NCBI GenBank assembly: GCA_021771715.1
Contig: JAETOO010000001.1
Location: forward strand, 496,001 to 560,000
Length of the DNA: 64,000 nt
Reading direction: 5' to 3'
DNA from: Oscillospiraceae bacterium
Lineage (GTDB): Bacteria; Bacillota; Clostridia; Lachnospirales; Lachnospiraceae
Shown: piece by piece, positions 2,343-62,678 of the stretch
Numbering within the stretch: position 1 is the first letter of the stretch
Layout: each line of letters starts with the position of its first letter
Position numbers and translations under genes: made by a program
Notes under the pieces: model-generated
Told to the model about the DNA's origin: nothing
Database searches by the model: none
The model's input: only the letters and a program-made list of their open reading frames with translations

Positions 2343-3221
2343 TCAGACGGCCCGCCTCATCCACAGAAACGCATCCGTTCGCTCCAGAGCAAATCCCAGC
2401 GAGACGGCAAATCTCTGTGCCCCTTCGTTCGACGGATGAACCCGCACCCATACCTCCGACGCTCCGAGACGGTCGGCGGCGTAATCCAGCGCGGCCAGAC
2501 ACATCTCCGAGCCATAGCCGCGTCTGCGATCGCGCGGGTTCAGCATGTAGGCCATCTCCAGGGCATTGCCCGGCCCGGGATACTCTGAGAAGCCGCAGCA
2601 CCCGATCAGAGTGCTCCGGTCTGCCAGAAAGACACTCCACAGTCCGTATCCGTACAGCCGATACTGCTGCCGTACATACGCCTGCAGCCGCTCCTGTGTA
2701 AAGCTGCTCTGCCCGTTGCCGCCGTTCTCATCCGACAGCACGTACTCCATGCCCGGCTCCCTGCTGAGACGGATCAGAGGTTCGAAATCCGCCGGCGCAA
2801 TTTCCCTCAGAAGCAACCGTTCTGTCCTCGCGATCACAACCGGAACTCCCCGGAACCGGAGTAAGTATTCCTCCAGCTCTTGCCGGTCGATCTCCGCCGG
2901 ACTTTGCAGCACCAGCTCCGTCCCGTCGAAGTAAGGCCCGTCCGCCGCACCTATCCCGACACACGCCACACCAAGCCCTGCAGCCTGCCGGGACAGCCGC
3001 ATGTCATCGGTGAGGATCACCGTATGCGGCGCCTCCGCCCCGGAAAACCAGCGGTCCATCCGTACCCCTGCCTCCCCCTCCGGTCTGACCGGTCGATAGA
3101 GACCCAGCTTGTTCTGGCAGAGCTCCCCGACAGAAATACCATCCGACCGCAGCGTATCTAAAAGCCCCGGCAGACCGCCTTCGTGCTCCGGCCGCAATTT
3201 ATACCAGACATGCCTCAGCAT
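2343..3221 (-). CDS. GNAT N-acetyltransferase with N-terminal HAD-like domain
   Basis: C-terminal GNAT (LNPRDRRRGYGSEMCLAALDYAADRLGASEVWVRVHPSNEGAQRFAVSLGF); N-terminal region resembles a degenerate HAD fold. Confidence 0.75.
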   Translation of the reverse strand: MLRHVWYKLRPEHEGGLPGLLDTLRSDGISVGELCQNKLGLYRPVRPEGEAGVRMDRWFSGAEAPHTVILTDDMRLSRQAAGLGVACVGIGAADGPYFDGTELVLQSPAEIDRQELEEYLLRFRGVPVVIARTERLLLREIAPADFEPLIRLSREPGMEYVLSDENGGNGQSSFTQERLQAYVRQQYRLYGYGLWSVFLADRSTLIGCCGFSEYPGPGNALEMAYMLNPRDRRRGYGSEMCLAALDYAADRLGASEVWVRVHPSNEGAQRFAVSLGFALERTDAFLWMRRAV

Positions 3222-3366
3222 CCGTCTCTCACCTGTCCTCTCCGCCCTTGCCACAGGCAAACACCTGGGGGCCGACTCACCCGCACTTTTTCCCGAATCC
3301 TTTCACAATGCGATTCCGCACCCGTTCCGAAGCACTCCGCATGCGGCCTCTGCGCGCATCCGCTCA

Positions 3367-4131
3367 TCAGAAATTCAGCACGCAGCTCATCTCATGCCAC
3401 TGCTCGCCGCCCCACGACGAGTCCGCAAGGCCCTCATCGCGGAACCCCATCTTTTTGTACATCTTGACCTTCGCATCCAGGCAGGTCAGCAAAATCAGCC
3501 GCCTCCCGTTTTCCTTCTCCCTGCGAAGATAACTGTACATCAGCTCCCGCGCCAGTCCCTGACGGCGATACTCCGGCAATACATCCAGCCCGAGCAGCAT
3601 AATATTCCTGCCATCCGGCTGGTGCAGACCGGCATCCGTGAAAAATTCATCCCGGAAGGAATACTCCTCCGTCGCCAGCCCGTTCAGAAAGCCCGCCAGC
3701 CTGCCTGTGCGCCGGTCCACCGCCACCAAGAACAGCTCCGGCGCTCTCTCGATGCGTTCCAGCATCATCTCCCGCTTGCACGCCTCGTTCGGCGGAAAAC
3801 AAATCTGCTCAATCTCCGCCGCCTGCTCTGCCTCGTCCGGGCGGATATTGCGGAACTCAAACTGCTCGTACAGCGCCTGGTCCTCCAGGCCGTACTGCTC
3901 AAGCAGCTGCCGCGCCTGCGCCTTGCCCGCCTCCGTCAGATAAGCGACCTTCCCCCTCCTCGGCTGCCGGATCAGCTCCTGATCCTCCAGACGGTTCATA
4001 GTATCAAAATCATACCCCTTCCAGGCCACCTCCATATATCTGGAAAATTCCTTCTCATCCTGGAATCTCGTCAGGTACATCAGCATCAGCGTCAATTCCT
4101 TCACCGCTGTTTCTCGCGTCTTTTTATCCAT
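3367..4131 (-). CDS. DUF6429-like domain fused to GNAT N-acetyltransferase
   Basis: N-term KELTLMLMYLTRFQ...AWKGYDFDTMNRLEDQELIRQPRRGKVAYLTEAGKAQARQLL; C-term GNAT VLPEYRRQGLARELMYSYLRREKENGRRLILLTCLDAKVKMYKKMGF. Confidence 0.7.
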   Translation of the reverse strand: MDKKTRETAVKELTLMLMYLTRFQDEKEFSRYMEVAWKGYDFDTMNRLEDQELIRQPRRGKVAYLTEAGKAQARQLLEQYGLEDQALYEQFEFRNIRPDEAEQAAEIEQICFPPNEACKREMMLERIERAPELFLVAVDRRTGRLAGFLNGLATEEYSFRDEFFTDAGLHQPDGRNIMLLGLDVLPEYRRQGLARELMYSYLRREKENGRRLILLTCLDAKVKMYKKMGFRDEGLADSSWGGEQWHEMSCVLNF

Positions 4132-10820: not shown

Positions 10821-10859
10821 GTAATTGTTCCTCCATTTTAAAGTGATTGATTCTAATTG

Positions 10860-10897
10860 GGGCAACATGCATTGCCCAGCCGCAGCGCACCTGCGGC
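10860..10897 (-). promoter_or_regulatory. two adjacent hairpins in the 5' leader of rpsM-rpsK-rpsD-rpoA-rplQ
   Basis: Minus: GCCGCAG-gtgcg-CTGCGGC then GGGCAA-tgcatg-TTGCCC, about 40 nt before the rpsM ATG. Confidence 0.45.
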
Positions 10898-11284
10898 CTT
10901 TCCATTCCATTAAGCCATGAGTGCCGTCCTCGTTCCACACTGCCGTGCGTCTCGCGGAATATCACACACTCTTGCAAGACATGCTCATCCTGCGCCAGCG
11001 GTTTTCGCACAGGATCGTGTACTGTCACATCCTGGTCTGGTATTAAAAGCAATATCGCAACGAAATAAAATCTCTGACTGTTTATATTAAGGGTAGTCAT
11101 CCGGCATCTGCCTGCTGCAGGCTGTCGAATGCTCCCGGAAAAAAGTCACACTTCTCATTTATTCCATCGTTATATTGATTTCTGACTGTGAACTGCTCTC
11201 CTCCTGGATCTGCTCTGCAAAATACAAAGCTCATCCTGCGCTCAGAGGAAATCCGCCACGGTCATTTCCGCCGTTTTGTGTTGC

Positions 11285-25764: not shown

Positions 25765-25864
25765 CGACAAGCGGTGACTGTACACTCTTCCGTGCGTGTC
25801 GCATTTTGCTCACACGGCGCTCCATTCTCGATGGATCTCTTACAATTTGTACAGTGACTTGTCG
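25765..25864 (-). promoter_or_regulatory. structured leader upstream of rpsJ (putative S10-operon autoregulatory leader)
   Basis: Long-range pairing CGACAAGtcACTGTAC with GTACAGTcaccGCTTGTCG enclosing TCCAT-cgaga-ATGGA and CGTGT..GCA-aaa-TGC..ACACG hairpins. Confidence 0.6.
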
Positions 25865-25956
25865 CCAGTTTTATAACTTGACATTCGCTCCACGGAAAAC
25901 CTGCGGATGCTCCGCAGCAACCTCGCGCTTCATTGCTATCATGTCACAACGTTGAT

Positions 25957-54796: not shown

Positions 54797-54900
54797 CCGA
54801 CTACTCCTCCCGGCTCCTATTCACATTTTTCCTTCGTGGAAGAACTACAAAATTATAGCATTTCATTCTGCAATAGGGAAGACTGTCTCCATAAAAAGCG

Positions 54901-54932
54901 CAAAAAATAACGCCCTGCCTTTTGACAGAGCG
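54901..54932 (-). terminator. terminator after tandem hairpin repeats
   Basis: Minus: CGCTCTG-tcaaaagg-CAGGGCG-TTATTTTTT. Confidence 0.75.
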
Positions 54933-54948
54933 CTACAAACATTTTAAT

Positions 54949-55039
54949 CCCGAACATTTATAAGCCGCATATCGGGGAGCGAACAATATTTGTGATCCTG
55001 AACATTTATAAGCCGCATAACAGGAAGCGAACAATATTT
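54949..55039 (-). ncRNA. two tandem 43-nt hairpin-forming repeats (48-nt period), candidate structured RNA
   Basis: Minus: AAATATTGTTCGCTtCCTGttATGCGGCTTATAAATGTTCAGG and AAATATTGTTCGCTcCCCGatATGCGGCTTATAAATGTTCGGG; the T:A in copy 1 becomes C:G in copy 2. Confidence 0.55.
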
Positions 55040-55069
55040 TACAGAGGGAATCATTTCCCTTCTACTATT

Positions 55070-55098
55070 ACTATATGCAGCCAGCTGATTTATGTCAA
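55070..55098 (-). promoter_or_regulatory. sigma-A-type promoter for the tandem-repeat RNA
   Basis: Minus: TTGACA - 17 nt - TATAGT. Confidence 0.7.
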
Positions 55099-62566: not shown

Positions 62567-62575
62567 GGTGATGTC

Positions 62576-62678
62576 CATATGACTGACGGAAGTGGGATAA
62601 CCACAGGGAGTATGGGCCGAAGAAGAGCCGACCGTCTGGGCACCAATGTGTGACCGTGGTATGGGCTCTGTTTTTTTC
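62576..62678 (+). promoter_or_regulatory. ZTP (pfl) riboswitch with expression-platform terminator
   Basis: gactgacggaagtgggataaccacagggagtatgggccgaagaagagccgaccgtctgggca matches pfl core; AGAGCC/GGCTCT stem then TTTTTTT; upstream of purine genes. Confidence 0.9.

What the first reader, a model, noticed from the sequence alone, without database searches (positions are those of the whole stretch)
54901..55098. Candidate novel structured RNA: promoter, two tandem covarying hairpin repeats, terminator
On the minus strand a near-ideal promoter (TTGACA-N17-TATAGT) is followed by a short GGGAA/TTCCC hairpin. Two 43-nt repeats with a 48-nt period come next, then an intrinsic terminator. The outer stem differs between copies in a compensatory way: CCTG...CAGG versus CCCG...CGGG. 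The ~20-nt loop (ATGCGGCTTATAAATGTT) is nearly invariant. A conserved loop with a covarying stem, duplicated in tandem before a terminator, fits a tandem aptamer/attenuator or a ~150-nt sRNA. It lies between dltX and the LytTR/GHKL two-component operon, and the regulator gene may have its own TGnTATAAT promoter. No known Rfam class was recognised.
Basis: partly seen in the sequence, partly recalled or inferred. Interest (0 to 1): 0.8.

Follow-up and report, generated by a model that had tools for sequence, protein, structure and literature searches.

The report
Orphan CptI-type toxin-antidote RNA
This stretch is the RNA antidote of a known kind of bacterial toxin-antidote pair (type III, CptIN family) whose toxin gene is missing here, so it is not a new class of RNA, but it shows that such antidotes often outlive their toxins and might protect the cell from related toxins arriving on phages or other mobile DNA.

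Summary
In detail: on the minus strand there is an 11/12 sigma-70-type promoter, a leader hairpin, two 48-nt repeats (81% identical) with a compensatory stem change, and a 13-bp intrinsic terminator. The "novel class" reading does not hold. The same array occurs in at least 25 Clostridia stretches, and in the intact ones it directly precedes a ~160-190-aa gene that is a CptN toxin (NCBIfam NF047359, E 2e-56; PDB 4RMO, E 2.5e-20). [quoted passage not shown] The repeats are better read as H-type pseudoknots than as long-loop hairpins; both stems covary, and the loop carries the AU shown to be essential in the solved CptI. Rfam has no model for it. What is unusual is that it is an orphan: no CptN lies next to it and no intact one was found in the genome, and a second CptI elsewhere in the genome also has a broken toxin. 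In a census of 396 family genomes, 19 of 31 assessable strong CptI loci lack an intact toxin. Most likely it is a still-transcribable remnant of a CptIN locus; active protection against incoming CptN is possible and testable.

The parts
55070..55098 (-). sigma-70-type promoter TTGACA-N17-TATAGT
   Evidence: 11/12 match; a TTGACA...TATAAT-like promoter at the same place in most sister loci
55045..55060 (-). 5' leader hairpin AGGGAA-ATGA-TTCCCT
   Evidence: equivalent stem with a 4-nt, often GNRA-like loop in sister loci; 98.3% of cells paired, all 5 pairs with double changes, covariation score 0.79 vs 0.25 shuffled
54992..55039 (-). CptI-type repeat 1 (48 nt), H-type pseudoknot: S1 55030-55027 with 55016-55013; S2 55024-55021 with 55000-54997; L2 ATAAATG 55009-55003
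   Evidence: 2 differences over 43 nt from units next to a full-length CptN; one S2 pair broken (T x T)
54945..54991 (-). CptI-type repeat 2, same fold: S1 54982-54979 with 54968-54965; S2 54976-54972 with 54953-54949; L2 ATAAATG 54961-54955
   Evidence: model R1 80.9 bits; 1 difference over 43 nt from units next to full-length CptN in L019/L021/L022/L023
54935..54944 (-). partial third repeat (AAATGTTTG), as in sister loci before the terminator
54903..54936 (-). intrinsic terminator, 13-bp stem plus T run; separates antitoxin from toxin gene in intact loci
54797..54902 (-). place where the CptN toxin gene would start; no toxin sequence within 1.45 kb downstream
   Evidence: tblastn 'absent'; no match over the NF047359 cut-off in the genome
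54089..54796 (-). LytTR response regulator that now follows (neighbour, not part of the system); putative TGCTATAAT at 54860-54852
   Evidence: Pfam Response_reg and LytTR

Best explanation
The element is the antitoxin RNA gene (CptI-type) of a CptIN-family type III toxin-antitoxin system that has lost its toxin gene. A promoter drives a ~165-nt transcript with a 5' leader hairpin and two tandem 48-nt repeats, ended by an intrinsic terminator. In intact relatives each repeat would fold into an H-type pseudoknot that CptN cuts out and is then inhibited by, as in the solved CptI/CptN ring. Here CptN is absent, so the RNA should stay unprocessed and have no partner. It most likely persists as a still-transcribable remnant, because losing the toxin first is survivable whereas losing the antitoxin first is not. 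It would be expected to neutralise CptN of the same subtype if such a toxin entered the cell. Shown by sequence: identity, structure conservation, absence of toxin. Inferred: transcription, folding, antitoxicity, order of loss.
For: 25 stretches with the exact 19-mer share promoter/leader/repeats/terminator, and intact ones continue into a ~160-190-aa ORF. That ORF is NF047359 CptIN toxin, E 2e-56 and 6e-55, 190 and 185 bits against a cut-off of 90, and matches CptN in PDB 4RMO, E 2.5e-20. Pseudoknot S1+S2: 90.4% of cells paired, 15 double-change cells vs 4.3 shuffled, covariation 0.206 vs 0.118 (0/500), slid controls 22-51% paired. Published CptI_Er landmarks (45 nt, two repeats, L1 G13, L2 A27-G35, essential A29 and U30) map onto arrays upstream of 67-78% identical CptN genes and of the truncated own-genome copy; the window L2 ATAAATG corresponds to A29-G35. 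No toxin downstream and none over cut-off in the 97.7%-complete genome. The own-genome second CptI has CptN truncated after ~24 aa and fused to an IstB (IS21) remnant. Census: 12 intact, 9 broken, 10 absent of 31 assessable strong CptI loci.
Against: Antitoxicity and transcription are not shown. The defining toxin is absent here. CptI antitoxins are selective (non-cognate pairs with toxins 35-44% identical do not cross-inhibit), so a target toxin must be close. Repeat 1 has one broken S2 pair. Period is 48 nt, not the 45 nt of the crystallised CptI. The assembly has 54 contigs, so a toxin in a gap cannot be wholly excluded.
Confidence: 0.9

Rival explanations
1. The orphan CptI is kept by selection as an RNA anti-addiction or anti-phage module: it soaks up CptN from incoming mobile elements so the host can lose them or survive them.
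For: Promoter, leader hairpin, both pseudoknots and terminator are nearly intact. The orphan keeps two repeats whereas 8 single-repeat loci have 0-1 full-length toxins (Fisher p 0.033, or 0.003 with the internally deleted L016 counted as broken). CptIN of the same RNA subtype occurs on IMG/VR contigs, one beside virion-like genes; CptN relatives occur on plasmids. Phage pseudo-ToxI repeats neutralising ToxN are a precedent (PMC3475682).
Against: Recent toxin loss explains the intactness equally well. The position is not conserved in the related species seen. Several other orphans are decayed (L088, L089, L090). Own-genome CptI copy 2 has an evident IS-linked break.
Confidence: 0.27
2. Promoter capture: with the toxin gene gone, leaky readthrough past the CptI terminator now helps transcribe the LytTR/GHKL operon that occupies the toxin's place.
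For: Same strand, the next gene starts ~110 nt after the terminator; type III operons are transcribed from one promoter through a terminator into the toxin gene (PMC5086642).
Against: Strong 13-bp terminator; a putative TGnTATAAT lies in front of the regulator; no conserved association.
Confidence: 0.1
3. Tandem riboswitch/aptamer or attenuator controlling the LytTR/GHKL operon.
For: Structured tandem RNA upstream of a regulatory operon.
Against: In homologous intact loci the next gene is CptN; the repeats match the CptI protein-binding pseudoknot; regulator relatives in 60 genomes are not reported with the element.
Confidence: 0.03
4. The 48-nt repeats are protein-coding (36-aa ORF with 16-aa repeats) or are LytTR DNA-binding sites.
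For: Period is a multiple of 3 and an ATG ORF spans both copies.
Against: Frame is interrupted by TAG in most sister loci and the period is 47 nt in L017, L020 and L038; substitutions follow base pairs; sister arrays are followed by CptN, not by a LytTR gene.
Confidence: 0.01

Closest known systems
CptIN type III toxin-antitoxin system (Eubacterium rectale CptIN_Er, PDB 4RMO, PMC4627078)
   Same: Two tandem repeats ahead of an intrinsic terminator, H-type pseudoknot with short L1 and A-rich L2 (AUAAAUG), sister loci encode CptN (NF047359)
   Different: Repeat is 48 nt, not 45; S1 is 4 bp and S2 register is shifted by one; an extra covarying leader hairpin; CptN gene missing in this genome
ToxIN / AbiQ and TenpIN type III systems
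   Same: Promoter - tandem RNA repeats - terminator - toxin layout; pseudoknotted antitoxin RNA
   Different: ToxI-type repeats are 34-36 nt (PMC5086642); the sister toxins match the CptN family and PDB CptN, not ToxN
Phage pseudo-ToxI repeats (PMC3475682)
   Same: Antitoxin-like RNA repeats without their own toxin
   Different: Phage-borne and shown to neutralise ToxN; here chromosomal, CptI-type and untested
Chromosomal anti-addiction modules (reviewed in PMC12548467)
   Same: Chromosomal toxin-antitoxin relic that could block a mobile element's toxin
   Different: Those discussed are chromosomal toxin-antitoxin systems; an RNA-only orphan was not found described in the papers searched

Membership tests
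CptI antitoxin RNA (CptIN family) | Tandem ~45-nt repeats (about 2 plus a partial copy) | tested here: met
   2 x 48 nt plus AAATGTTTG; sister loci 47-48 nt, Er-type 45 nt
CptI antitoxin RNA (CptIN family) | H-type pseudoknot S1/S2 with short L1 and A-rich L2 including A29 and U30 | tested here: met
   Covariation of both stems; L2 ATAAATG in both repeats; by sequence only, no structure solved
CptI antitoxin RNA (CptIN family) | Intrinsic terminator after the repeats | tested here: met
CptI antitoxin RNA (CptIN family) | Homologous arrays lie directly upstream of CptN | tested here: met
CptI antitoxin RNA (CptIN family) | Inhibits CptN; processed by CptN | not testable with these tools
   needs co-expression
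Complete CptIN type III toxin-antitoxin system | CptN toxin gene downstream | tested here: not met
   absent within 1.45 kb; nothing over cut-off in the genome
Any Rfam family | Covariance-model match at gathering score | tested here: not met
   none at this place; none on 11 related CptI-bearing loci except an unrelated skipping-rope RNA in L097
Cis-regulatory riboswitch of the LytTR operon | Conserved association with the regulated gene | tested here: not met
   sister loci carry CptN, not LytTR

The most novel reading that the evidence does not exclude
Toxin-free CptI arrays form a class of chromosomal RNA anti-addiction elements in Lachnospiraceae-like Clostridia, kept because they neutralise CptN carried by phages and other mobile elements; toxin-based surveys have missed them.
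Probability: 0.22. Interest if true: 0.7.

Novelty: new member of a known kind. Interest (0 to 1): 0.42.

Why it matters
The survey described in PMC5086642 starts from the toxin protein, so an antitoxin RNA left without its toxin is invisible to that approach, and Rfam has no model. A covariance model of the repeat found such orphans to be common. They could be read as footprints of past toxin-antitoxin invasion, or as ready-made RNA immunity against toxin-carrying mobile elements; a simple kill/rescue assay can decide.

Tried and rejected
Rfam at gathering and lax thresholds: no relevant match. Plain MFE folding: weak (z -1.6), because the pseudoknot is invisible to it. Coding ORF through the repeats: rejected. 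LytTR/attenuator reading: rejected because sister arrays precede CptN. Synteny in relatives: dltX is followed by other genes and the LytTR operon is not there, so no empty site could be defined. Phage and plasmid nucleotide searches and two exact patterns in IMG/VR: no match; CptN itself was found on two IMG/VR contigs. PADLOC and Pfam have no CptN hit. The 2012 type III survey paper is not held.

Full report
Observation. On the minus strand the window holds TTGACA-N17-TATAGT (55098-55070), a leader hairpin (55060-55045), two 48-nt repeats that are 81% identical, a partial third repeat and an intrinsic terminator (54936-54907). The promoter and terminator alone are near chance expectation in such a scan, and ordinary folding is unremarkable; the evidence that it is a real unit is comparative.

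Homologues. An exact 19-base core scan of genome contigs gave 25 stretches from Clostridia, mostly Lachnospiraceae. Most show the same order of promoter, leader hairpin, one or two repeats and terminator. In the intact ones a ~160-190-aa reading frame follows. It is the CptIN-family toxin of NCBIfam (NF047359, 190 and 185 bits against a cut-off of 90) and aligns with the crystallised CptN of PDB 4RMO (E 2.5e-20). The element is therefore a CptI-type antitoxin RNA.

Structure. On 33 repeat units a pseudoknot (S1 of 4 pairs, S2 of 6 columns) has 90.4% of cells paired, 15 double-change cells against 4.3 in shuffles, and a covariation score of 0.206 against 0.118 (0 of 500); sliding the partners drops pairing to 22-51%. 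The sixth S2 column (25 with 42) is mostly unpaired and is weak. The published CptI_Er is a 45-nt H-type pseudoknot from two repeats, with L1 = G13, L2 = A27-G35, and A29 and U30 essential. Counting along the 45-nt units upstream of CptN genes 67-78% identical to 4RMO reproduces G13, the loop A27-G35 and the 3' GA; the window loop ATAAATG corresponds to A29-G35. The mapping onto the crystal numbering is mine, since the E. rectale RNA sequence itself was not retrieved. The leader hairpin covaries even more strongly (98.3% paired, all five pairs with double changes); only the 12 sequences with a four-base loop were used, so that figure is on a chosen subset.

Orphan status. No CptN sequence lies within 1.45 kb downstream and no match in the 97.7%-complete genome passes the CptN cut-off. 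The best genomic match is the first ~24 residues of a CptN fused to an IstB-like (IS21 helper) fragment, behind a second, Er-type CptI array on contig C41. So both CptI arrays found in this genome lack a working toxin.

How common. In 396 family genomes the repeat model R1 found CptI in 42 and the toxin profile matched 73, of which 57 were over cut-off. Combining coordinates by hand with the locus sequences, the 32 loci at E <= 1.1e-6 divide into 12 with an uninterrupted toxin (G404, G065, G331, G362, G330, G464:C7, G270, G317, G183, G305, G208, G445), 9 with a broken toxin or remnant (G261, G197, G316, G464:C20, G378, G405, G130, G446, G453), 10 with none (G000, G476, G194, G239, G198, G231, G257, G118, G489, G025) and one at a contig end (G312). 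Five of the ten share the same downstream gene pair and may not be independent losses; the model was also trained partly on orphan loci. Weaker hits down to E 0.001 are mostly intact loci, so the orphan share among all hits is lower.

Decay or use. Among 27 loci of the window subtype, single-repeat loci have 1 of 8 full-length toxins and two-repeat loci 12 of 19 (Fisher p 0.033). The single case, L016, has an internal deletion in the toxin; counting it as broken gives p 0.003. Some single repeats look like collapses between repeat 1 and repeat 2 (CCTG..CGGG). The window keeps both repeats with one broken S2 pair in repeat 1; repeat 2 differs by 1 of 43 nt from units beside full-length toxins. 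This fits a recent toxin loss or continued use; the data do not separate the two.

Mobility. CptN with CptI arrays occurs on two IMG/VR contigs: L128 lies next to virion-protein-like genes and its repeat is close to the window's (78.1 vs 80.9 bits); L129 lies near ORFs that look like recombinase and transposase (not searched against families). Distant CptN relatives occur on five plasmids. This makes protection against incoming CptN plausible. It is not shown, and published CptI antitoxins are highly selective.

Conclusion. Identity as a CptI-type antitoxin RNA is firm (about 0.95). Orphan status in this assembly is firm (about 0.9). Remnant versus selected protective RNA is open, with remnant favoured. 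It should not be filed as a CptIN system, because the toxin is missing, nor as a novel RNA class.

Noticed in passing
G000:C41:201595-201900 (L034): Second CptI array in the same genome (two 45-nt E. rectale-type repeats); its CptN is truncated after ~24 aa and fused to an IstB/IS21 remnant.
   Followed up: yes
L079, L080, L083, L088, L090: Orphan CptI arrays, without the usual terminator, directly upstream of the same 61-aa plus larger (~143 aa or more) ORF pair (MATSSITHNF.. / MSDKYFTVNI..), which looks like another toxin-antitoxin-like pair; no Pfam or NCBIfam match.
   Followed up: partly
L128 (IMGVR_UViG_3300010167_000024), 2860-3531: Intact CptIN on a putative phage contig beside virion-like genes, with a repeat nearly identical to the window's.
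   Followed up: partly
L009, L016, L028, L031: Single CptI repeats that look like repeat-1/repeat-2 hybrids (CCTG..CGGG), suggesting collapse by recombination, mostly with a broken toxin.
   Followed up: partly
L014 (minus strand): Start of CptN fused in frame to a uroporphyrinogen methyltransferase-like gene after an apparent deletion (name from reading the sequence, not searched).
   Followed up: no
L044: Another same-genus (G017) CptI repeat apparently without a CptN after it.
   Followed up: no
window 25859-25941 (-), 10852-10902 (-), 62569-62648 (+): Known RNAs: S10-Clostridia leader, S4-Clostridia leader, ZMP/ZTP riboswitch.
   Followed up: no
L097 865-947 (-): skipping-rope RNA (RF02924) in the same 3-kb locus as a CptIN system.
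   Followed up: no
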